Assembly: GCF_020711235.1 (NCBI RefSeq)
Contig: NZ_JAJFAV010000021.1
Coordinates: 1-64,000, forward strand
Origin: Hymenobacter sp. 15J16-1T3B
GTDB lineage: Bacteria > Bacteroidota > Bacteroidia > Cytophagales > Hymenobacteraceae
Length of the DNA stretch: 64,000 nt
Direction: 5' to 3'
The translations under genes were made by a program, and so were the position numbers. The notes below the pieces were generated by a model. That model did no database searches, was not told where the DNA came from, and was given only the letters and a program-made list of their open reading frames with translations. Positions within the stretch are counted from its first letter, which is position 1; the number at the start of each line of letters is the position of its first letter. Of the stretch, positions 6,494 to 16,615 are shown in pieces.

Positions 6494-7939
6494 ATGACCG
6501 CCCCCAACTTCTACCAGCACATCCACCGCACCCTCGGCCAGCAGGCCGAGGCCGTGCTGCTGGAGTGGCCCGGCGCCGGGCCGCGGGGCACGTTGGCCCG
6601 CTACACCGGCCGCGACCTGGCCGGCCGCATCGGGGCTTACCAGCAACTGCTCGCGCAGCGCGGCATCCGGGCCGAGCAGCCGGTGCTGCTGCTGCTGCCC
6701 GTGGGCGCCGAGCTGATTTGCGGCTTGCTGGCCGTGATGAGCCTGGGCGCCGTGCCGGTGCTGCCACCCGCCGGGGCTTCGGTGCGCCGCCTGCTGGCAT
6801 TGCGCCGAGGCGCGGGCATCGGGGCGGCGCTAGCGCCGGCGCGGCTGGCGCGGCGCTACGGCTGGCTGACGCGCGGGCTGGGGCTGCGGCTGCTAGGCGC
6901 CCCGGACGCCGCGGCCGCCGCCGAGCTGCGCCCCCCGCAAGCCGTAGCCGCCGAGCTGCCGGCGCTGGTGTCGCACAGCTCGGGCTCCACGGGCCGGCCC
7001 AAGGCCATCCGGCGCAGCCACCGGGTGCTCACGGCGCAGCACGAGGTGCTGCGGCAGGTGTTTCCGCCCTGGGCCGGGCAGCGCGACTTCCCGCTGTTCC
7101 CCAACATTCTGCTGCACAATTTGGCCGTGGGCGCCACCACGGTGCTGCCCGACGTGCCCTGGGGACACCTCGCCGACCTCGACGCGGCCCGGGTGCTGGC
7201 CCAGCTGCAGCTCACGGGCGCCGAGACGCTGACCGGCAACGTGTTCTACTTCACCCGCCTGCTCGAGCAACTGCGCCGGCAGCCGGTGGCCTTGCCGGCC
7301 GTGCGCGCCGTGGGCGTGGGCGGCTCGCCGGTGCCCGAGTGGCTGCTGGCCGGCCTGCAAGCGGCGCTGCCCCAGGCGGCCGTCTACGGCATCTACGGCT
7401 CCTCGGAAGCCGAGCCCATTGCCGTGCGCCGCTACGACGCGGCCCGGCCCGCCAACCCGCGCCAGGGCTACTGCGTGGGCCCGGTGGTGGCCGGCTTGCA
7501 CTGCCAGCTGCGCGGCACGGGCACCAGCCTCGACATGCCCGACGGCCGGCGCTTCGCCGTGGGCGAAATCACGGTGCGCGGCCCGCACGTGGCCGCCGCG
7601 CCCGATGGCTGGCTGGCCACCGGCGACTTCGGCTACTTCGACGACGACCAGTGCCTGTGGCTGACCGGCCGGCAGGGCAACGAAACGGTGCACCGCGGCG
7701 TGCAGCACTACCAGCTCGAGCACATGCTGCAGCAGCTGCCCGGCGTAGAGCGCGCCGCCGCCCGCGCCACGGCCACCGGCTTTGCGGTGTACGTGCAGGG
7801 CCCAGCCGACCTGGAAACCGTGCGGGCCGCGCTGGCGGCCCAGTTTCCGCCCGGCCTGTGCAAGCAGCTGCACCACCGCCCCGCCCTGCCCGTCGATGGG
7901 CGCCACCACTCCAAAATCCTCTACGACCAACTGCGCTAA
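6494..7939 (+). CDS. AMP-dependent acyl ligase (ANL superfamily)
   Basis: 481 aa adenylate-forming enzyme that would activate a carboxylic acid with ATP. Core motifs are present: the P-loop SSGSTGRPKAIRRSH (about 160-176), the A5-like YGSSEAEPIA (about 299), the A7-like TGDFGYFDD with downstream TGRQ (about 376), and a C-terminal Lys in RHHSKILYDQL (about 472) in place of the usual PxxxxGK. It is shorter than typical acyl-CoA synthetases (500-560 aa), with a reduced C-terminal lid. It is the first gene of a three-gene unit: the DUF3419 gene follows after 16 bases, and a kinase overlaps that. The context suggests an acyl or amino-acid adenylate feeding a small-molecule or lipid pathway. The acceptor (CoA, carrier protein or amine) cannot be told. 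Confidence 0.85.
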   Translation: MTAPNFYQHIHRTLGQQAEAVLLEWPGAGPRGTLARYTGRDLAGRIGAYQQLLAQRGIRAEQPVLLLLPVGAELICGLLAVMSLGAVPVLPPAGASVRRLLALRRGAGIGAALAPARLARRYGWLTRGLGLRLLGAPDAAAAAELRPPQAVAAELPALVSHSSGSTGRPKAIRRSHRVLTAQHEVLRQVFPPWAGQRDFPLFPNILLHNLAVGATTVLPDVPWGHLADLDAARVLAQLQLTGAETLTGNVFYFTRLLEQLRRQPVALPAVRAVGVGGSPVPEWLLAGLQAALPQAAVYGIYGSSEAEPIAVRRYDAARPANPRQGYCVGPVVAGLHCQLRGTGTSLDMPDGRRFAVGEITVRGPHVAAAPDGWLATGDFGYFDDDQCLWLTGRQGNETVHRGVQHYQLEHMLQQLPGVERAAARATATGFAVYVQGPADLETVRAALAAQFPPGLCKQLHHRPALPVDGRHHSKILYDQLR

Positions 7940-7955
7940 GCGCCCCGCTGCCGTG

Positions 7956-9095
7956 ATGCATTCCGAATTCTATAACGTCGACCTCGACCGGCTGCGCTAC
8001 GCGCTGGTGTGGGAAAGCAGCCGCACCCTGGCCGCTGCCTTGCAGGTGCAGCTCACCGACGAGCTGCTCGTCATCTGCTCGGCCGGCTGCAACGCCCTCA
8101 ACGCCCTGCTGCTCGGCGCCCGCCGCGTAACGGCCATCGACCTGAACCCGGTGCAGCTGCACTTGCTGGAGCTGAAGCGCTACCTCATTCTGCACCACGC
8201 GCCCGCGGTGCTGCGCGCCTTGCTCGGCCTCGACGGGCCGGCTGCGGTGCTGGCCACTTGGCAGCAAATCGAGCCGGGCCTGCCGGCGGCGCTGCGGGCA
8301 TACTGGGCGCCGTTCTTCGAAAGCCACCCCAGCGGCATTTTGCCGGCCGGCAAGCTGGAAAGCTACCTGCTCGGCTTCTTGCCCACGCTCAGCCCGGCCG
8401 TGCAGCAGCGCCTGCGCCACCTGCTCACCTGCGAGTCGGTGACGCAGCAGCAGCGCTGGTTTCGGGAGCAGCTGCACGGCACCGAGTTCGAGACGCAGTT
8501 CGTGAGCTACTTCGACGAGGCCAACCTCAGCCGCGGGCGCGACCCGAAACTGTTCAAGTACGCCGAGGAATCGGGCGGCCGGGCCTTTTACGCGCGGCTG
8601 ACGGCCCAGCTGAGCACCGAGCTGGTGCGCGACAATTTCTTTTTCCGCTTCTTCTTTTTCGGCCCCGAAGGCCTGCCCGAGCACGTGCTGCCGCCCTGCT
8701 ACCAGGTGCGCAACCACGGCCGCCTGCGCAGCCGGCTCCACCGCCTAAGCACCGTGCAGGGCGAGGCCTGCGAGTACCTGCTCAGCCCGGCCGGCCGCGC
8801 CATCAGCAAGGCCAGCCTCTCCAACATCTTCGAATACGTGAGCCCCGCGGACTTTGCCCGCGTGCGCGCTGCCCTGCAGGCCCGCCCCGCTGCCCCGGCC
8901 CTGCGCGCCGTGTACTGGAACCTGCTGCAGGCCCAGGGCGACGCGGCACCGGCCACCTCCGGCGCGGAAGCCACGCCCGCCCACGCCCAGCTGCCCGGCA
9001 GCTGCTTTTACTTCCGCGACGTGCGCGTGCTCGGCGCCGGCCCGGCCGATACCCTTGTCCACTCCTCGTTGCCCCAAGCCGAAGTTTATGTCTAG
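7956..9095 (+). CDS. DUF3419 / BtaA-like 3-amino-3-carboxypropyl transferase
   Basis: 379 aa. The N-terminal SAM-binding region (LVICSAGCNALNALLLGA, then VTAIDLNPVQLHLLELK; about 35-75) and the C-terminal block (LSNIFEYVSPADFARV, later YWNLL; about 285-320) are hallmarks of DUF3419. Its characterised member BtaA moves the 3-amino-3-carboxypropyl group of S-adenosylmethionine onto diacylglycerol in betaine-lipid synthesis. The usual partner BtaB (N-methyltransferase) is absent here; the partners are an acyl ligase and a kinase-fold protein. The product is therefore probably not ordinary DGTS. ATG 7956 is preferred; a GTG directly before it is possible. The last 8 bases overlap the next gene, indicating translational coupling. 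Confidence 0.85.
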   Translation: MHSEFYNVDLDRLRYALVWESSRTLAAALQVQLTDELLVICSAGCNALNALLLGARRVTAIDLNPVQLHLLELKRYLILHHAPAVLRALLGLDGPAAVLATWQQIEPGLPAALRAYWAPFFESHPSGILPAGKLESYLLGFLPTLSPAVQQRLRHLLTCESVTQQQRWFREQLHGTEFETQFVSYFDEANLSRGRDPKLFKYAEESGGRAFYARLTAQLSTELVRDNFFFRFFFFGPEGLPEHVLPPCYQVRNHGRLRSRLHRLSTVQGEACEYLLSPAGRAISKASLSNIFEYVSPADFARVRAALQARPAAPALRAVYWNLLQAQGDAAPATSGAEATPAHAQLPGSCFYFRDVRVLGAGPADTLVHSSLPQAEVYV

Positions 9096-10284
9096 CCCCG
9101 CCTACTACTGCTCGCCCGGCTTCATTGAGAGCCTGATGCGCGCCCACGCCCCCCAACGACGCCTGCGCGTGCTCGACGTGCAGCCGCTGGCCGTCGACAG
9201 CTCCGCCAGCATCCTGGCCGTGCTGACGGCGGGCCAGACCAGCCGGCCGGTGGGCCACTTCGGCCTGTTGGTCATCTTCGAGGCCGACGGGGAGCCGGCA
9301 CGCACCGAGCGCATGGTGCTCAAGCTCAAGCCGCCCGGCCACGAGGTATCGGCCATGCTGGCGGGGCTGGCCCAGGCCTGCGGCGGCGAGTTGGCCCGCA
9401 CCTACCCGGCCTTTGCCACGCGCAGCGGCTTTCACCACACCCACCACCGCGAGCTGGCCCTCTACGCCCAGACCGCGCCCGAGCTGATGCCCCGCATCTG
9501 GGGCCTGCACCACGACGACGAAGCCGAGGTGTACGCCATCCTGATGGAATACCTCGACCAGGCAGAGGTGGAATTGCTGAACTCGGTGATGCAGCCCGAG
9601 GCCTGGACCGACGAGCACCTGCGCACCGCCCTCGACCACCTGGCCGCTTGGCACGCCCGCCACCTCGTCGGGGAGCCCGACGGCGCGCTGCCGGCCTGGC
9701 CCGATCTGCCCTCCCCGGCCTATATGCAGCAGCTCAGCCCGCTCTGGCAGGCCTTGCTGACCAACGCCGCCACAAACCACCCCGCGCTGTATTCGGCCGA
9801 GCGCACGGCCTTGCTCCAGGAGGCCATTGCCCGCATCCCGGAGTACTGGGCCGAGCTGGCCGCCGCGCCGCGCACGCTCTGCCACAACGACCTGAACCCG
9901 CGCAACACCTGCTTCCGCCGCGACGCCGCCGGCCGCCTGCAGCTCTGCGCCTACGACTGGGAGCTGGCCACTTACCACGTGCCGGCCTACGACGTGGTGG
10001 AGCTGCTCAGCTTCGTGCTCGATGCCGACCGCTACCACCTGCGCCCGCACTACCTGGAGTATTACCGCCAGCAGCTGCACGCCCGCACCGGCCGCTTCGC
10101 CGACGCCGAGGCGTTTCGCCGCCTGGCCGGCCTAGCGGCGCTGGATTTTGGCCTGCACCGCCTGGGCATGTACCTGATGGCGCACACCGTGGGACCCTAC
10201 CCCTACCTGCCCCGCGTGGTCGACAGCTTTTTTGATACGCTGACCCAGCTGCAACCGCTGCGCCCGGAGCCGGTGTACGCCTGA
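9088..10284 (+). CDS. APH/choline-kinase-fold phosphotransferase
   Basis: 398 aa protein of the aminoglycoside phosphotransferase/choline kinase fold. The catalytic loop HNDLNPRN (about 265-272) is the Brenner-type HxDxxxxN motif, and YDWELA (about 288) supplies the metal-binding Asp in place of DFG. The N-lobe carries a Lys-containing strand (ERMVLKLKP). Members phosphorylate small hydroxylated molecules, but several act on aminoacyl or acyl substrates, so the substrate is open. The ATG at 9088 overlaps the DUF3419 stop by 8 bases (ATGTCTAG), so the two are coupled. A strong terminator follows 20 bases after the stop, which closes the operon. Confidence 0.8.
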   Translation: MSSPAYYCSPGFIESLMRAHAPQRRLRVLDVQPLAVDSSASILAVLTAGQTSRPVGHFGLLVIFEADGEPARTERMVLKLKPPGHEVSAMLAGLAQACGGELARTYPAFATRSGFHHTHHRELALYAQTAPELMPRIWGLHHDDEAEVYAILMEYLDQAEVELLNSVMQPEAWTDEHLRTALDHLAAWHARHLVGEPDGALPAWPDLPSPAYMQQLSPLWQALLTNAATNHPALYSAERTALLQEAIARIPEYWAELAAAPRTLCHNDLNPRNTCFRRDAAGRLQLCAYDWELATYHVPAYDVVELLSFVLDADRYHLRPHYLEYYRQQLHARTGRFADAEAFRRLAGLAALDFGLHRLGMYLMAHTVGPYPYLPRVVDSFFDTLTQLQPLRPEPVYA

Positions 10285-10304: not shown

Positions 10305-10344
10305 CGCCCCGCCCGCACTGCTGTGCCGGCGGGGCGCTGTTTTT
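10305..10344 (+). terminator. rho-independent terminator of the ligase/DUF3419/kinase operon
   Basis: The stem CGCCCCGCC (10305-10313) with GGCGGGGCG (10328-10336) is extended inward by GCAC/GTGC around a TGCT loop. It is followed by a five-T run at 10340-10344. It lies between the convergent kinase and LysR genes. Confidence 0.8.
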
Positions 10345-10361: not shown

Positions 10362-11249
10362 CTACTTCCGCTCTGCTACGGTCACCAGCCGCTCGACTTC
10401 GGCCCGCAGGTTGGCCACCACCACGGAGGGGTCGTCGCGGCGCGCGGTGAGGTAGACGGTGGTGTGGTGCGGCAGCGGCAGGAAGCGCAGGCCGGGTGCG
10501 GGACTGGCGGCGTAGGACATGGGCAGCACGGCCACGCCCAGGCCCGCGGCCACCAGGCTCAGGATGGTGGCACCGAAATCGGAGGTGATGGTGCGCCGGG
10601 GCGCGAAGCCGTACGCCGCGAACATGCCCCGCAGCGTCTGGGCGTAGGTGCCGTCGCCGGCGAAGGACGAGAGGATGAACCGCTCGTCGCGCAGCTCGGC
10701 CAAGGACGTGAACGTATCGGCCCGGACGGGGTGGGCGGCGGGCACGGCCAGGGCCAGTGGCTCGGCAAATACCGGCTCCGATACCAGTGCAGGGTTGCGG
10801 GCTGGCTCGCGCCAGAAGCCGGCGTCGAGCTGGTAGCTGAGCAGCTGCTGCTCGGAGTCCGCGGCGCCGATTTCGTGCAATTCCAGCGCTACCAGCGGGT
10901 AGCGGGCGGTGAAGCCCTGCAGCAGCCGCGGCAGCCAGTCGTAGGCCACCGAGCCCACGTGGCCCAGGCGCAGGCTGCCCACTTCGCCCCGGCTCAGCTG
11001 GCCGGCGTGGCGCTGCACCGCGTCGAATTCGGCGAGCAGGCGCGTCCACTCGGCCTGCAGCAGCTGGCCGGCGGCGGTCAGGCGCACGGTGCGCGAGCGG
11101 CGCTCCAGCAGCGCAAAACCCAGCTCCTGCTCCAGGCCCTGGATGTGACGGCTGAGCGAGGACTGCGTAATACCCAACTGCTCGGCCGTTTGCCAGAAGT
11201 GCAGGCGGTCGGCCAGGCGCAGAAAGTAGCGGATGTGGTGCAGGTTCAT
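10362..11249 (-). CDS. LysR-family transcriptional regulator
   Basis: 295 aa, the standard LysR length. N-terminal helix-turn-helix (residues about 1-60: MNLHHIRYFLRLADRLHF, then GITQSSLSRHIQGLEQELG, LLERRSRTVRLTAAG) followed by a periplasmic-binding-protein-like effector domain (about 90-290). The ATG at 11249 gives the family-standard N-terminus; an open extension to 11354 is rejected. The gene is divergent from a GNAT acetyltransferase gene, and inverted GTTGC/GCAAC repeats in between make control of that gene and of itself likely. The inducer is unknown. Confidence 0.92.
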   Translation of the reverse strand: MNLHHIRYFLRLADRLHFWQTAEQLGITQSSLSRHIQGLEQELGFALLERRSRTVRLTAAGQLLQAEWTRLLAEFDAVQRHAGQLSRGEVGSLRLGHVGSVAYDWLPRLLQGFTARYPLVALELHEIGAADSEQQLLSYQLDAGFWREPARNPALVSEPVFAEPLALAVPAAHPVRADTFTSLAELRDERFILSSFAGDGTYAQTLRGMFAAYGFAPRRTITSDFGATILSLVAAGLGVAVLPMSYAASPAPGLRFLPLPHHTTVYLTARRDDPSVVVANLRAEVERLVTVAERK

Positions 11250-11256
11250 TGATGCA

Positions 11257-11317
11257 GCAACGGCATTGGTTGCGGCGAAAGTAGCATTGTTGCGCATCAA
11301 CGCGCCGCCTAGTTTTG
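11257..11317. promoter_or_regulatory. LysR/GNAT divergent promoter with paired dyads
   Basis: For the rightward gene TTG at 11287-11289 and TAGTTTTG at 11310-11317 are separated by 20 bases, a full Bacteroidota -33/-7 promoter. For lysR, TACTTTCG on the minus strand lies at 11276-11283. Two dyads flank or overlap these: GCAAC-N7-GTTGC (11257-11273) and GTTG-N5-CAAC (11289-11301), the latter touching the -33 element. This is the expected layout for LysR activation. Confidence 0.55.
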
Positions 11318-11376
11318 TGGCTATTCCGCGCGGCGAGCTGCCGCGGGCGTCCACTCACTTGCTTTCCTTTTCCGTT

Positions 11377-11826
11377 ATGCTGCGCCTGCTCCGCACCGAT
11401 TCCGACAACGCCGATTTTCGCGCCCTGGTCCGCCTGCTCGACCAGGATCTGCAAGTGCGCGACGGCGCTGAGCACGGCTTCTACGCCCAATTCAACAAGG
11501 TCGACGCCATCCGGCACGTGGTGGTGGCCTATCAGGACGACGAGCCCGTTGGCTGCGGCGCCTTCAAGCCATTCGAGGCCGATTCGGTGGAAATCAAGCG
11601 CATGTTTGTGCAACCCGTGCACCGGGGCCGCGGCGTGGCCCAAGCCGTGCTGACGGAGCTGGAAGGCTGGGCGCGGGAGCTGGGCTACGCGGGCTGCGTG
11701 CTCGAAACCGGCAAAAAGCAGCCCGAAGCCATCCGCCTCTACCAGAAAAGCGGCTACCAATTTATCCCGAACTACGGGCAGTACATCGGCGTCGACAACA
11801 GCGTGTGCATGCAGAAGGCGGTGTAA
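11377..11826 (+). CDS. GNAT-family N-acetyltransferase (small)
   Basis: 149 aa, a single GNAT domain that would transfer an acetyl group from acetyl-CoA to an amine. The acetyl-CoA-binding segment VEIKRMFVQPVHRGRGVAQ (with RGRGVA as the Q/RxxGxG/A motif, about 70-90) and the C-terminal AIRLYQKSGYQFI (about 125-137) are typical. ATG 11377 is preferred because it follows the consensus promoter; the open frame upstream would run through that promoter. It is transcribed alone, divergent from lysR, which probably controls it. The substrate is not evident. Confidence 0.88.
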   Translation: MLRLLRTDSDNADFRALVRLLDQDLQVRDGAEHGFYAQFNKVDAIRHVVVAYQDDEPVGCGAFKPFEADSVEIKRMFVQPVHRGRGVAQAVLTELEGWARELGYAGCVLETGKKQPEAIRLYQKSGYQFIPNYGQYIGVDNSVCMQKAV

Positions 11827-11869: not shown

Positions 11870-12937
11870 TTATAAGTCCTGGCCGAAGAGCGCGTAGTGA
11901 GCGGTTTCGGCGGGCAGGCCGTCGGTGAAGTGCAGGGAAAAGTTGCCGGTGCGCATCAGGCAGAAGATGACGTCGTCGTACCGCTCGCGGAAGTGCACCA
12001 TGCCGTAGGCGCCCAGGTACGACATCAGCCCGCGCTGCCGGTAGGCCGGGTGCACGCCCACGGTTTTGGCCAGCAGCTGCTTGCGGGCCAGGCGCGGGAA
12101 GTCGCGCTCAAACACGGGCGGCGCGTCGTCGGGCAGCGCCAGGTCGGTATAGTTGGGGTGGCAGAAGCTCAGCGCGGCCAGCTCGCCGCTAGCTTGGTCG
12201 CGAAACAGCACCGAGGTGTGCGGGCACAGCTTGGCGGCGTACTGCCGGTTGTAGAGCAGCCGAAACTGCGCCAGCGGCACCGGCCGGTAGCCGGGGTTGG
12301 CCCCGAAAATAGCTTGCACCAGCTCGAAAATGGCCGTTTCGTGCTCCTGCCAGGTGTGCTCGTTTAGCGGAATGAAGTCGAACGGAATCTTGGCCAGCTC
12401 GCGCAGCAGCATATCCTTTTCGGTGTAGACCGCCGGCACGTCTTGGGGCCGGATGCGGCGACTCTCGAAGGTGCTGACGGGCGCCAGCCCCAAGCCAGCC
12501 AGCAGCGCGGGGTAGTAATCGGGGTTGACGGGCTCCCGATCGAACACGCCCCAGCCGGGCGCGGGCGGCAGGCGCAGGCGGTAGCGGTGGTAAGTGTTGA
12601 AGTCGACGGGGCCGACGAGGCGGCGCCGGCCGCGCTGCCGGGCGTCGGCGCGCAGCAGCTCAAACGCTTCTTCGTTCAGCGCCGCATTGGGCATGGTTTC
12701 CCAGAAACCAAAAAACGCTTCTTCGGACTCGTGCGGGAAAATGCCGACCAAGCGCAGCGTGGCCTCGTCGGTGTAAAGTACGATGTCGTTGCGGCTGGCT
12801 TCGAGGGCAAACAGCTGCTCGGTCAGCGGCCGGCTTTCGGCGGGCCGCTGCGGCCGGTCGGCGTACACGCGGTCGGCAATCAGCCAGAAGGACTCGGGCA
12901 GCTGCCCTTGGTAAGAAATGCGGCGGAGGTTGCTCAT
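11870..12937 (-). CDS. GNAT-like protein of the UbiA/Rph-like set
   Basis: 355 aa. The C-terminal half looks like a GNAT domain: LLAKTVGVHP, AYRQRGLMSYL (acyl-CoA loop RQRGLM, about 310), then FCLMRTGNFSLHF. The N-terminal half (about 1-190) is not recognised but has regular alpha/beta character and may be a second, degenerate GNAT domain, as in other double-GNAT proteins. The ATG at 12937 (MSNLRRISYQ) is chosen over an Arg/Cys-rich open extension to 13048. It lies 132 bases downstream of the Rph-like gene on the same strand. No T-run terminator separates them, so co-transcription is possible. Acyl donor and acceptor are unknown. Confidence 0.7.
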   Translation of the reverse strand: MSNLRRISYQGQLPESFWLIADRVYADRPQRPAESRPLTEQLFALEASRNDIVLYTDEATLRLVGIFPHESEEAFFGFWETMPNAALNEEAFELLRADARQRGRRRLVGPVDFNTYHRYRLRLPPAPGWGVFDREPVNPDYYPALLAGLGLAPVSTFESRRIRPQDVPAVYTEKDMLLRELAKIPFDFIPLNEHTWQEHETAIFELVQAIFGANPGYRPVPLAQFRLLYNRQYAAKLCPHTSVLFRDQASGELAALSFCHPNYTDLALPDDAPPVFERDFPRLARKQLLAKTVGVHPAYRQRGLMSYLGAYGMVHFRERYDDVIFCLMRTGNFSLHFTDGLPAETAHYALFGQDL

Positions 12938-13069: not shown

Positions 13070-15700
13070 CTACAGCAGCTCGATTTCGCCGCTGCGGCCG
13101 TCCATGCGCACGCGTTGGCCGCTCTGCAGCCGGCGCGTGAGGCCGGGCACGTTGATGATGGTGGGAATGCCCAGCTCGCGCAGCAGAATCACCGAATGCG
13201 ACAACGAGGAACCCTTTTCGATGATGACGCCGCGGCACACCGGAAACAGCGCCGCCCAGCCTGGGTCGGTGCGTAGGGCGCAGACGATTTTGCCGGCCAC
13301 GGCCAAGCTGTCCTCGGGGCTGGTCACCACAATGACTTCGCCGCTGAGCTGCCCAGGGTAGCAGCCGGTGCCGCGCAGCAGCCCGGGGTCGGCGGCCTCG
13401 TCCGCCGCGGGTGCCGCCGCGGGCGGGGCGGGCACCGTCACGCGGCTGGGCACGTGCTGCTGGGCGTAGCGGGCAAATTCCTGCTGCCGCTCGGCCACCA
13501 GCACGCGCAGCGACGCGGTTTCGGCAGTTTCTTCGGCGGCAGCGGCGCGCACCGGTTGGATCCGCGTCGCGGCGGCAGCGGATTCGCTCAAGCGGCGGGC
13601 GGCGGCTTCGATTTCGGCCTCGGTCAGGTAAAACACGTCGCGGGCGGTGGCCAGCTCGCCGGCGGCGGTCAGCTGCTCGCCCAAGGCCAGGTACAGCCCG
13701 CGGTACATGCCAAACAGGCGGGTGCGCTCCAGCCGCAGCGCCTCGCGGTGCGCAATGGCGCGCTGCAACTGCTGCAGCCGCTGGCGCAGCTGCCGGCGGC
13801 GCCAGGGCAGGCGCCCGCGCAGCAGCGCGTCGATATCGGCCTGGGCGCCGTGCTGCACGGTCTGGTCGGCAGTGCCGAAGGCGGCGGGCGCAGCGCCGGG
13901 CACGAGGTAGTTGCGCAGGTACTGGTAGAAAATCAGCGGGCGGGTGCGCATGGTCGCGGTTTCCAGCTTCAGCTCCCCCACCGTCCGGTCGCCGAACTGC
14001 TCGATGAAGGCGGCTACCTCGGCGGCAAACGCGGGAAAGCGGGCTTGCACCTGGGCGGGCAAGTCGTCGGAAAAATCAACGATGAGCTGGCGCAGCGGCT
14101 CCTGGGGGCGGGCCAGCGCGGCCAGGGCCAGCAGGCGGCGGGTGGGTTGGGTGCTGGCCAGGTCCTGGTCGGCGGCCAGGTAGCGGCGCAGCAGCTCCTC
14201 GGGCTCCGGGGCGCCCACTTGCCGCAGCTGGCGCAGGGCCCGGCCGTTGGTCATCATCACGTAGAAGTCGTTGACGATGGGCGTGGACCACTGTCCCAGC
14301 AATTCGGCGTCGAGGCGGGCTTTTTCGGCCAGCAGCTCGGCCGGGCTCAGCGCCTGCAGCGGCCGGGCGTAGAAGCGCTGGTAATGGGCCGCAAACCGGG
14401 CCTGAAACGTGCGCACGGCCCCGTCGAGGCGGGCAAAGGCCAGCAGCAGCCGCGAGAGGTTCAGCAGCAGCCGCGGCGCCAGCCGGAGCTTGTCGCGCAG
14501 GCTTTTCTCCCGGGTCTGCACGAAGTCGACGGGCTCTTCCAGGCCCATCATGCGCTCCATGTCGTCCTTGTTCTGGCGAAAGGCGGGCAGCAGTTGTAGG
14601 CCGCGGTACCAGTTGTTGATGTGGTAGTAAATGCGGCCCTGCACCAGCCCGAGCAGGTTGGTCACCACCGGCTCCTGCGCCGCAATCTGCGCCGGGGGCA
14701 GGCCCAGCGCGTGCATGGTTTGGCGGTACACGGTGGCGTAGGCGCGGCGGGCAAAGCTGAACGTAAGCGGCGTGGTGACCCCGCAGTAGCTTTCCTGGAT
14801 GTTGCTGTTGTCGTACACGACGACCTCCGGAATGGGCTGGGTAATAGGCCGGGCCTGCACCACCCACAGCGCCCCGGCCGCATCCACCACGAACTCCACG
14901 TCCTGGGGCCCGCCCAGCTCCGCTTCCAGCCGCTGCCCCAGGCCGAACAGCGCCGTCAGCTGGGCCTCGCTCAGGCAGGGCGCGGCCGGCCCTGGCCCGA
15001 CGACCTGCGCCGTGAGGCCGCCCGCGGGCCGGGCCACCAGTTGCTCGTCCTGGCCGCCGAGCACGCGGCGGTGCGCCTGCCCGGTGGCTTTCAGCAGGTA
15101 GAACTCGTCGGGCGGCAGCTGCCCGCTCACCAGCCCCTCGCCGAAGCCGCGCACGGCGTGAACGGCCAGCTCCTGCGGGTACTCGGGAAAGGTGGTGAAC
15201 ATCACTCCGCTGGCCGCGGGCGTCACCTGGCGCTGAATAATGACGGCCGGGCGGGCCCGTAGCGAGAGGCCTTTTTGGCGGCGGTAGGCCAGAGCCCGCT
15301 CGGAATAGGCCGAGGCGGCACAACGGGCCACGGCCGCCAGCACGGCGTCTTCCGAAGTCAGGTTCAGAAACGAGTCCATCAGCCCGGCGAAGGCATCGTG
15401 GCGGCCGTCCTCGTCGGCCACGGAGGAGCGCACCACCACCGGCTCGGCGGGAAAATTCCAGCGCTGCAGGGCCGCGCGCACCTGCGTTTGCAGCGCCGCG
15501 GGCAGCGGCCACTGCGCCAGCCGGGCGTGGAGTTCTGCCGGGTGGTGCGCGCCGGCCAGCGCCCCGTCGAATTCCTCGGCGGGAATGACGGCGAAATCGG
15601 GCACGCGCAGGCCGGCGGCTTGCAGCCGTTGCAGCCCGCGGGCTTTGCCCCCCACGGTGGCCTCGGGGTACTGCCGGGCGTTGTCGGTCGTAATCAGCAT
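13070..15700 (-). CDS. Rph/PEP-synthase-like ATP-dependent phosphotransferase
   Basis: 876 aa with the three-part layout of rifampicin phosphotransferase and PEP synthase. An ATP-grasp N-domain (about 1-300) has VGGKARGLQRL, VVRSSVADEDG and VEFVVDAAG, WVVQARPI. A large mostly helical middle domain (about 310-770) follows. The C-terminal swivelling domain carries the phospho-histidine in EKGSSLSHSVILLREL (His about 835). The size matches Rph (about 870 aa) rather than PEP synthase, which has a TIM-barrel PEP domain. The middle domain is where the acceptor would bind. It starts 9 bases after the UbiA stop, so the two form an operon. Resistance to rifamycins cannot be assumed; the UbiA neighbour hints at a prenylated or lipid acceptor. 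Confidence 0.75.
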   Translation of the reverse strand: MLITTDNARQYPEATVGGKARGLQRLQAAGLRVPDFAVIPAEEFDGALAGAHHPAELHARLAQWPLPAALQTQVRAALQRWNFPAEPVVVRSSVADEDGRHDAFAGLMDSFLNLTSEDAVLAAVARCAASAYSERALAYRRQKGLSLRARPAVIIQRQVTPAASGVMFTTFPEYPQELAVHAVRGFGEGLVSGQLPPDEFYLLKATGQAHRRVLGGQDEQLVARPAGGLTAQVVGPGPAAPCLSEAQLTALFGLGQRLEAELGGPQDVEFVVDAAGALWVVQARPITQPIPEVVVYDNSNIQESYCGVTTPLTFSFARRAYATVYRQTMHALGLPPAQIAAQEPVVTNLLGLVQGRIYYHINNWYRGLQLLPAFRQNKDDMERMMGLEEPVDFVQTREKSLRDKLRLAPRLLLNLSRLLLAFARLDGAVRTFQARFAAHYQRFYARPLQALSPAELLAEKARLDAELLGQWSTPIVNDFYVMMTNGRALRQLRQVGAPEPEELLRRYLAADQDLASTQPTRRLLALAALARPQEPLRQLIVDFSDDLPAQVQARFPAFAAEVAAFIEQFGDRTVGELKLETATMRTRPLIFYQYLRNYLVPGAAPAAFGTADQTVQHGAQADIDALLRGRLPWRRRQLRQRLQQLQRAIAHREALRLERTRLFGMYRGLYLALGEQLTAAGELATARDVFYLTEAEIEAAARRLSESAAAATRIQPVRAAAAEETAETASLRVLVAERQQEFARYAQQHVPSRVTVPAPPAAAPAADEAADPGLLRGTGCYPGQLSGEVIVVTSPEDSLAVAGKIVCALRTDPGWAALFPVCRGVIIEKGSSLSHSVILLRELGIPTIINVPGLTRRLQSGQRVRMDGRSGEIELL

Positions 15701-15709
15701 GCGGGCGGC

Positions 15710-16615
15710 TTAGGATAATCGGCGGGCAATTTCCACGATGATGGCCACGTAGCTCGTCAGCATAAACAGCGACACCAGCAGCTCGGCTACTTTCAGGGGC
15801 CGGGCGGCGGGCCGGCGCCAGCTCAGCCCGTAGGCCGCCGCGGTGGCCACAAACAGCCCGCCCATCAGCCCAAAGGGCCAAGCGCGGGCCTGCAGCAACT
15901 GCAGCAAGTAGCCCTGCACCGCCGAGCCGGCTAGTAGCACCAGCAGCACGGCCGCCATGGCCCCGCCGTAGCCCAAGGTGCGCGAGTAGGAGTCGACGCC
16001 GGGCCGCTCGTCGGGAGCGGGCTTGATTTTGCGGGCTATTTCGAAGGCCAGCCCGCCGAGCAAACTCAACAGCCCCAGCAGCAGCAGGGGCGGCGTGAAC
16101 CGCGGCGCGGCGGCGTAAGCGGCCCACACCCAGCCGATCAGCAGCGGCATGATGAGCAGGTGGGTGAGGGCGTAGAGCACCAGCCGGGCCCGCAGCCAGG
16201 CCGGCGCGAAAAACTCGTAGCGCATCACCAAGCTGTAGCCCACGGCCAGCCCCCAGGCCAGCAGCGTGGCCCCGCCCATCCAGCCCGACCAGGCCGCTTC
16301 GAGCAGCAGCCCGGCCCAGGCCAGCCGCTGCAACTGCCCCAGCGTCACGCGGCCCGATTGCAGCACCCGCTCGGGGAAGTTGACGGCGTCGGCGGCGTAG
16401 TCCTTGATTTCATCGAAGACGCGCAGGCGGAAAAAAAACGAGATGACCGCCACGATGCCCAGCGCCTCGCGCGGGCCGAAGCCGGCCAGGGCCGCGGCGG
16501 CTGGCTGGGTGGCCCGCGCCACGGCATACACCGTCAGAAACAGGATGGCGAACAGGGCCATGTTGACGGGCGGAAACCGCTCCTGCAGGTAGGCCCAGAA
16601 GGCTCGACTATTCAT
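15710..16615 (-). CDS. UbiA-family membrane prenyltransferase
   Basis: 301 aa polytopic protein (about 8-9 TM segments) of the UbiA fold, which transfers a polyprenyl chain from its diphosphate to an acceptor. The first Asp-rich motif is present as FDEIKDYAAD (Asp68, Asp72, Asp76). The second is altered to EIARKIKPAPDERPGVDSY, so activity may differ from MenA or UbiA. A separate, standard MenA is encoded elsewhere in this window, so this is not the menaquinone enzyme. It is the promoter-proximal gene of the leftward set, with a -7-like TAATTTGG on the minus strand at 16620-16627, only a few bases before the ATG. The gene divergent from it is an RND exporter. Confidence 0.8.
   Translation of the reverse strand: MNSRAFWAYLQERFPPVNMALFAILFLTVYAVARATQPAAAALAGFGPREALGIVAVISFFFRLRVFDEIKDYAADAVNFPERVLQSGRVTLGQLQRLAWAGLLLEAAWSGWMGGATLLAWGLAVGYSLVMRYEFFAPAWLRARLVLYALTHLLIMPLLIGWVWAAYAAAPRFTPPLLLLGLLSLLGGLAFEIARKIKPAPDERPGVDSYSRTLGYGGAMAAVLLVLLAGSAVQGYLLQLLQARAWPFGLMGGLFVATAAAYGLSWRRPAARPLKVAELLVSLFMLTSYVAIIVEIARRLS

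What the first reader, a model, noticed from the sequence alone, without database searches (positions are those of the whole stretch)
6494..10284. Three-gene operon: acyl-adenylating ligase, BtaA-like aminocarboxypropyl transferase and APH-fold kinase
The genes are packed (16-base gap, 8-base overlap) and closed by a terminator, so they act together. BtaA (DUF3419) transfers a 3-amino-3-carboxypropyl group from SAM, usually in betaine-lipid synthesis with BtaB, which is absent here. An AMP ligase plus a choline-kinase-fold protein instead suggests activation, attachment of the SAM-derived homoserine group and phosphorylation, that is, a new lipid head group or small metabolite. I know no described pathway with this trio.
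Basis: partly seen in the sequence, partly recalled or inferred. Interest (0 to 1): 0.78.

Follow-up and report, generated by a model that had tools for sequence, protein, structure and literature searches.

The report
Six-gene cluster, possible prenyl aminolipid
The three genes are half of a conserved six-gene set that probably builds an unknown fat-like molecule from an isoprenoid tail and an amino-acid head group, and related sets occur in distant Bacteroidota and on a plasmid of an unrelated bacterium.

Summary
The trio is real and correctly placed: AMP ligase (A), DUF3419 (B), APH-fold kinase (C), with a 16-base gap, an 8-base overlap and a strong terminator. But it is half of the unit. 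Three genes 1.6 kb downstream on the other strand belong with it: a tandem-GNAT acyltransferase (D), a PEP-synthase/PigC-like dikinase (E) and a remote UbiA prenyltransferase (F). All six sit together in 23 of 24 fetched loci of 8 kb or more that hold C; order and strand vary. Nine other Bacteroidota loci carry F, E and B with a membrane protein (V) and no C, 8 of 9 with HMG-CoA reductase (H), 7 of 9 with A and D; a Roseinatronobacter plasmid has H-F-E-B-V-D-A. B lies outside the clade of BtaB-paired DUF3419 proteins. In six MEP-pathway genomes the cluster's HMG-CoA reductase is the only one, and no full mevalonate diphosphate decarboxylase was found. Best reading: an undescribed pathway to a prenylated, acylated aminolipid with a SAM-derived head group. 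The gene set is shown; product and step order are inferred. My searches of open-access papers found no description.

The parts
6494..7939 (+). Gene A: acyl/aryl-AMP ligase (ANL superfamily, best NCBIfam hit PRK09274, then OleC-like), motifs A3, A5, A7, A8 and A10 lysine present
   Evidence: PF00501 97 bits; PRK09274 208 bits, below its cut-off of 478; motifs; A10 region P466, D468, R470, H471, S473, K474, I475 invariant in 7 of 7 rows including two V-type copies and the plasmid copy
7956..9095 (+). Gene B: DUF3419 protein, predicted SAM-dependent 3-amino-3-carboxypropyl transferase of a clade separate from BtaB-paired DUF3419 proteins
   Evidence: PF11899 122.3 bits; alignments; tree
9088..10284 (+). 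Gene C: APH/EcKL-fold kinase with HNDLNPRN catalytic motif and YDW metal motif
   Evidence: PF01636 50.9 bits, PF02958 40 bits; motifs, invariant in 7 of 7 rows
10305..10344 (+). Intrinsic terminator after gene C (13 pairs, TTTTT)
   Evidence: -30.8 kcal/mol, z -3.96
11870..12937 (-). Gene D: tandem GNAT acyltransferase (Pfam GNAT hit only at 13.2 bits, cut-off 25)
   Evidence: AF2 model pLDDT 86.9; Foldseek top hits tandem GNATs 2wpw E 1.9e-11 and mycothiol synthase 2c27 E 5.7e-11, TM about 0.55; alignment across both cluster types
13070..15700 (-). Gene E: PEP-synthase / rifampin-phosphotransferase / PigC-like dikinase, catalytic His invariant
   Evidence: PF01326 190.6 bits and PF00391 62.5 bits; PRK06241.2-4 713 bits, below its cut-off 1063; S834-H835 invariant in 12 of 12 rows
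15710..16615 (-). Gene F: remote UbiA-superfamily prenyltransferase, DEIKDYAAD motif
   Evidence: no Pfam hit itself; NCBIfam PRK13592 6.4e-22, 78 bits, cut-off 443; profile hits DGGGP synthase 6m31 8.6e-5 and chlorophyll synthase 2e-4; plasmid orthologue passes the PF01040 cut-off, 43.9 vs 34.2 bits

Best explanation
The locus is half of a six-gene pathway (A-B-C and D-E-F) that most likely makes an isoprenoid aminolipid. F moves a prenyl chain from a prenyl diphosphate onto a small acceptor; B transfers the 3-amino-3-carboxypropyl group of SAM to the acceptor, giving a homoserine-type head group; A activates a carboxylic acid and the tandem GNAT D transfers it, probably to the new amine; E and C (perhaps V in other clusters) supply phosphorylation steps that prepare the acceptor or the prenyl donor. 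Shown: the conserved gene set and most family assignments. Inferred: substrates, order, product, and that it is a lipid.
For: All six genes together in 23 of 24 fetched loci with C. The close form of B and C are in the same 20 of 150 family genomes; F is in 19 of those 20. In a 395-genome phylum sample all 10 strong F hits (E below 1e-25) lie on the same contig as B and within about 8 kb; the F profile held no row from 9 of these 10 genomes. All 9 V-bearing loci keep F, E and B, 7 of 9 also A and D, and a Roseinatronobacter plasmid has H-F-E-B-V-D-A, so the set has crossed phyla. F is UbiA-like, D a tandem GNAT by model, E keeps its catalytic His, C its kinase motifs, A its A10 lysine. That BtaA acts on a lipid hydroxyl is recalled knowledge.
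Against: No product or activity data. B's model has only weak PDB matches (best E 0.029), so its SAM fold rests on sequence. The window's F hits no Pfam model. UbiA enzymes also act on soluble or aromatic acceptors (recalled). The two kinases have no proven step. G052 keeps B and a C with an in-frame TGA but has no A, D, E or F within the 19.5 kb fetched and no F in the genome search. Two V- or E/F-bearing loci (L038, L080) lack a detected A, as does L072.
Confidence: 0.42

Rival explanations
1. The cluster makes a soluble, secreted specialised metabolite (for example a prenylated amino-acid derivative), not a membrane lipid; A and D load and transfer a small acid, and B alkylates a nitrogen or oxygen of a small scaffold.
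For: Patchy distribution (20 of 150 family genomes; 10 of 395 phylum genomes with strong F), presence on a plasmid, and a tandem GNAT of the clavulanic acid pathway as nearest fold of D fit specialised metabolism. E resembles the prodigiosin ligase PigC (223 bits) as well as PEP synthase.
Against: No exporter, carrier protein or NRPS/PKS belongs to the conserved set; F and V look like integral membrane proteins (by eye; no membrane prediction was run); DUF3419 proteins of known role act on diacylglycerol (recalled).
Confidence: 0.3
2. It is a betaine-lipid (DGTS) or diacylglyceryl-homoserine branch that has lost or relocated BtaB.
For: B is a DUF3419 protein over the Pfam cut-off with the conserved SAM-site-like region.
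Against: B falls outside the BtaB-paired clade (14 rows, 100/100); no BtaB homologue adjoins an E/F-linked B, the nearest being a 25% match about 7 kb away in L078; betaine-lipid synthesis needs no prenyltransferase, dikinase, ligase or kinase (recalled). Genome-wide absence of BtaB was not tested.
Confidence: 0.08
3. Prenyl-alcohol salvage linked to a head-group enzyme: V or C and E convert a scavenged isoprenoid alcohol such as phytol to the diphosphate that F uses, as VTE5, VTE6 and chlorophyll synthase do in plants (recalled).
For: F's second PDB hit is chlorophyll synthase (2e-4); two kinase-like genes accompany a UbiA enzyme; V has RK..H and DN..IP motifs like phytol/dolichol kinases (likeness recalled; alignment).
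Against: V matches no relevant Pfam, NCBIfam or PDB family; C is APH-fold; the idea does not explain A, B, D or HMG-CoA reductase.
Confidence: 0.12

Closest known systems
BtaA/BtaB betaine-lipid synthesis (DUF3419 + SAM methyltransferase)
   Same: B belongs to the same Pfam family (PF11899) and keeps the SAM-site-like region
   Different: separate clade from BtaB-paired DUF3419 proteins; no BtaB adjacent; five other enzymes are linked instead
UbiA prenyltransferases: DGGGP synthase and chlorophyll synthase
   Same: F's profile finds them as its only relatives below E 0.01 among solved structures (8.6e-5 and 2e-4); aspartate-rich DEIKDYAAD motif
   Different: too remote for Pfam in the window copy; acceptor unknown
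PEP synthase / rifampin phosphotransferase / PigC family
   Same: E has both end domains and the catalytic His
   Different: below the cut-off of all 25 listed of 26 NCBIfam families; substrate unknown
Fungal SidI-SidF mevalonyl module of siderophore synthesis
   Same: an activating ligase plus an acyltransferase using a mevalonate-derived acid, as V-type clusters could (enzyme names from the start of the abstract of PMC3709128 in the listing; that SidF is a GNAT is recalled)
   Different: no homology tested; Hymenobacter-type clusters have no linked HMG-CoA reductase

Membership tests
DUF3419 (PF11899) | Pfam score over the gathering cut-off | tested here: met
   122.3 bits against 28.2
BtaA/BtaB betaine-lipid system | BtaB methyltransferase next to the DUF3419 gene | tested here: not met
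   blastp with the methyltransferase beside the split DUF3419 gene of S. meliloti Ak57 finds homologues near 11 Bacteroidota and 3 rhizobial DUF3419 genes (in L094 about 1.1 kb off), none adjoining an E/F-linked one; one 25% hit in L078 lies about 7 kb away
BtaA/BtaB betaine-lipid system | B groups with BtaB-paired DUF3419 proteins in a tree | tested here: not met
   the 14 BtaB rows form one clade, 100/100, without the window protein (53 rows, midpoint-rooted for drawing)
Aminocarboxypropyl transferases | transfer of the group from SAM | not testable with these tools
   sequence motif only; structure match weak
ANL adenylating enzymes | PF00501 plus motifs A3, A5, A7, A8 and A10 lysine | tested here: met
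APH-fold kinases | PF01636 plus HxDxxxxN and metal-binding Asp | tested here: met
UbiA prenyltransferases | PF01040 over cut-off | tested here: inconclusive
   window copy no Pfam hit; plasmid orthologue 43.9 bits over 34.2; profile reaches DGGGP synthase
PEP-synthase-like dikinases | PPDK_N and PEP-utilizers domains with catalytic His | tested here: met
Tandem GNAT acyltransferases | two GNAT domains in the fold | tested here: met
   predicted model only, pLDDT 86.9; Foldseek 2wpw E 1.9e-11, TM 0.55, rmsd 6.7 over 377 columns

The most novel reading that the evidence does not exclude
The cluster family makes a new class of lipid in which a mevalonate-type hydroxy acid is a building block instead of an isoprenoid precursor: the HMG-CoA reductase of V-type clusters works in bacteria that make isoprenoids by the MEP route and appear to lack mevalonate diphosphate decarboxylase, A and D activate and transfer the acid, F adds a prenyl chain and B an aminocarboxypropyl head group.
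Probability: 0.17. Interest if true: 0.87.

Novelty: new variant of a known kind. Interest (0 to 1): 0.64.

Why it matters
A conserved, laterally moving gene set joins prenyl transfer to a DUF3419 aminocarboxypropyl transferase, a combination I found in none of the paper searches named here. If it makes a membrane lipid, it adds a class of isoprenoid aminolipids to bacteria. In six MEP-pathway genomes it also suggests a job for HMG-CoA reductase outside isoprenoid supply, which a single deletion and a lipid extract could test.

Tried and rejected
Trio as the whole pathway: rejected, because D, E and F accompany it in 23 of 24 fetched C-bearing loci. HMG-CoA reductase as a partner in Hymenobacter: rejected as a link. 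It is in 72 of 150 family genomes, including G010 and G030, which lack the cluster, and lies outside the cluster wherever both occur except in G126; Pontibacter-type G028 and G013 have the cluster and no HMG-CoA reductase. So the mevalonate idea applies to V-type clusters only. Mevalonate kinase as a second test: inconclusive; TIGR00549 gives no hit over its cut-off in any of 15 genomes, even in two that have the decarboxylase. V as a phytol-kinase relative: not confirmed by Pfam, NCBIfam or PDB. B by fold: uninformative. Plasmid collection with F and B of the window: one hit each. Literature: DUF3419 is in 4 papers of the library, and none of their titles or abstract starts concerns such a cluster; the listings show nothing matching; passages of PMC12419801 describe other operons. 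Searches were for parallels (SidI/SidF; unidentified aminolipids of Hymenobacter) and only listings were seen.

Weak points of the counts. The D profile A5 was built with rows from 7 of the 8 genomes that it then hits above 300 bits, so only the absence of further strong hits is informative. In L071 the D, V and H queries partly come from that locus itself; D there was first placed by position, and its likeness to the plasmid D (tblastn 7e-25) supports it. Loci shorter than 8 kb were left out. The F of L009 is cut by the contig end, and the C of L102 is in two pieces. Rows dropped before the tree: 6 of 59 hits (two pieces of a split S. meliloti gene; L003, L008, L013 and L104 as relatives of rows kept); five rows were trimmed at the start or end by hand and L079 to its DUF3419 part. 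The chance figure (2.8e-25 for 20 of 20 in 150) ignores shared descent and the adjacency of B and C.
Full report
Observation. A (6494-7939) is an AMP-binding ligase, B (7956-9095) a DUF3419 protein, C (9088-10284) an APH-fold kinase, each over its Pfam cut-off. The A-B gap is 16 bases and B overlaps C by 8. A hairpin of 13 pairs with a T run at 10305-10344 folds at -30.8 kcal/mol, z -3.96. The simple terminator scan by itself was at chance level (4 found, 3.5 expected).

The unit is larger. tblastn of the window's neighbours against 14 named-genome loci (Hymenobacter, Solirubrum, Pontibacter, Fibrella and two MAGs, one of them Rudanella) found D (11870-12937), E (13070-15700) and F (15710-16615) with the trio in 14 of 14, F being cut by the contig end in L009. 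In the window D, E and F are on the minus strand. Other neighbours are shared less: the M28 peptidase by 6 of 14, the TonB receptor and the LysR gene by 3 of 14 each. With ten further loci from unnamed family genomes the count is 23 of 24 loci with all six genes; the exception is G052. Order varies: A-B-C facing D-E-F in most, all six on one strand in L005, L008, L011, L102 and L105. A set kept through rearrangement is the best evidence of a shared task.

Co-occurrence. In a sample of 150 family genomes, B matched 22, of which 20 are the close form, and C matched exactly those 20. F matched 19 of them plus G126, which carries the other cluster type. In a sample of 395 phylum genomes, B matched 47; F matched strongly (E below 1e-25) in 10, each on B's contig and within about 8 kb. 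D matched above 300 bits in 8, all with B and F, but 7 of these 8 genomes had contributed rows to the D profile, so the useful result is that no other genome gave a strong hit. Weaker F hits (63 of 73) and D hits (354 of 362 genomes; G288 and G503, at 121.5 and 99.9 bits, are in the cluster) are mostly general UbiA and GNAT proteins in my reading.

A second cluster type. In G306, G213, G165, four genomes of family f38 and G126 the order is H (HMG-CoA reductase)-F-E-B-V, with A and D close by except in G126, whose contig begins just past V. V looks like a membrane protein, extended in some; its likeness to phytol/dolichol kinases is recalled from motifs and was not confirmed by any library. C was not found near any of the 9 V-bearing loci. 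G503 (with V) and G288 (without) carry F, E, B and a D-like GNAT with a phosphatidylserine decarboxylase and a fatty-acyl reductase domain. On a plasmid of Roseinatronobacter sp. S2, an alphaproteobacterium, F-E-B-V-D-A are consecutive, and pieces of HMG-CoA reductase lie on both sides of the record start directly upstream of F. The plasmid D matches the D profile at 1.6e-39 in a search of two sequences, and its F passes the Pfam UbiA cut-off.

Enzyme assignments. E has both end domains of PEP-synthase-like dikinases and an invariant catalytic His in 12 of 12 rows, but it is under the cut-off of all 25 listed NCBIfam families and also resembles Rph and PigC. F finds DGGGP synthase and chlorophyll synthase among solved structures. 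D is a tandem GNAT by model (pLDDT 86.9) and Foldseek. A keeps ANL motifs, including the A10 lysine, in both cluster types. C keeps HNDLNPRN and the metal Asp. B keeps the SAM-site-like motif; its model (pLDDT 75.8) has only weak matches, several of them SAM methyltransferases, best E 0.029.

Relation to BtaA. I took the methyltransferase beside a split DUF3419 gene of S. meliloti Ak57 as a BtaB query. It found homologues near 11 Bacteroidota and 3 rhizobial DUF3419 genes, and adjoining none of those linked to E and F; a 25% match lies about 7 kb from B in L078. In a tree of 53 of 59 sequences the BtaB-paired proteins form one clade at 100/100 and the window protein lies outside it. Calling B 'BtaA-like' is fair for the family, not for the betaine-lipid role. 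The E/F-linked set needs two changes on the tree, which fits one origin and the loss in G052; support for uniting the C-type and V-type is moderate (93/85).

HMG-CoA reductase. Six genomes (G126, G165, G354, G405, G417, G425) have their only HMG-CoA reductase in the cluster, have GcpE of the MEP pathway and show no full mevalonate diphosphate decarboxylase; the only hits there are two partial ones of at most 29 bits, in G126. G306 and G213 have the decarboxylase at 160-164 bits (also under the formal cut-off of 171), no GcpE and two reductases, one in the cluster. The G126 cluster enzyme aligns to a solved HMG-CoA reductase with the NIEN, DKK, GQD and C-terminal His motifs in register (naming these as catalytic is recalled). 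So mevalonate is probably not used there for isoprenoids. This does not carry over to the window: in Hymenobacter-type genomes the reductase is widespread and unlinked (71 of the 72 family hits are in genera g1 and g5), and Pontibacter-type clusters in G028 and G013 do without it. Alternative mevalonate routes were not excluded, and the mevalonate kinase test failed to discriminate.

Mechanism. I propose that F prenylates an acceptor, B adds the aminocarboxypropyl group, A and D add an acyl group, and E plus C (or V) phosphorylate intermediates. The conserved gene set and most families are shown; every substrate, the order and the membrane location of the product are inferred. Decarboxylase genes beside DUF3419 in G288, G503 and G280 could mean that some relatives trim the head group to an aminopropyl group, but they score close to ordinary housekeeping decarboxylases (PSD 350 bits against a cut-off of 371; LysA 293 against 298), so this is only a hint.

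Novelty. All enzyme families except V are known; I found no description of the combination (open-access full text only). I saw listings and abstract starts, and passages of PMC12419801, which describes other operons.

Noticed in passing
L039:8689-13573; L070:6187-10161: A DUF3419 gene sits beside genes for a long-chain acyl-ACP reductase (TIGR04058 in L039, 155 bits, cut-off 450), an aldehyde-oxygenase-like ferritin protein (PF11266 in L039) and a GNAT, with a fatty-acid desaturase in L039: another unassigned DUF3419 setting (L070 by sequence likeness only).
   Followed up: partly
L079:6497-11870: DUF3419 fused to a PEMT-like methyltransferase domain, next to a GNAT, a LysA-like decarboxylase and a diacylglycerol-kinase-like gene: possible one-protein BtaA-BtaB analogue.
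   Followed up: partly
L072:1238-10135; L080:5630-14534: F, E and B with phosphatidylserine decarboxylase and a fatty-acyl reductase (NAD_binding_4), plus a DAGK-like gene in L072.
   Followed up: partly
G000:C22:117738-118853 (L106:8733-10286): Hymenobacter-type genomes carry one HMG-CoA reductase although the three tested (G000, G136, G052) have GcpE and only weak partial or no mevalonate diphosphate decarboxylase hits; 72 of 150 family genomes have the gene. Its role there is unexplained.
   Followed up: partly
L102:11145-11951: In G139 gene C is interrupted by a transposase-like gene of 268 aa (named from sequence likeness, not from a library); the other five genes remain.
   Followed up: no
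L098 (G052): A decaying cluster: B and a C with an in-frame TGA remain; A, D, E and F are not in the 19.5 kb fetched.
   Followed up: no
L112:3679-10017: Rhizobium plasmid run of genes for ketoacyl-ACP synthase III, an oxidoreductase, an MBL-fold hydrolase, 'CoF synthetase' and DUF3419: a further unassigned DUF3419 setting.
   Followed up: no
window 10362-11826: A LysR regulator and a GNAT on the other strand lie between the two halves of the cluster in the window and in the close Hymenobacter loci L002, L003 and L010; a regulatory role is possible but untested.
   Followed up: no
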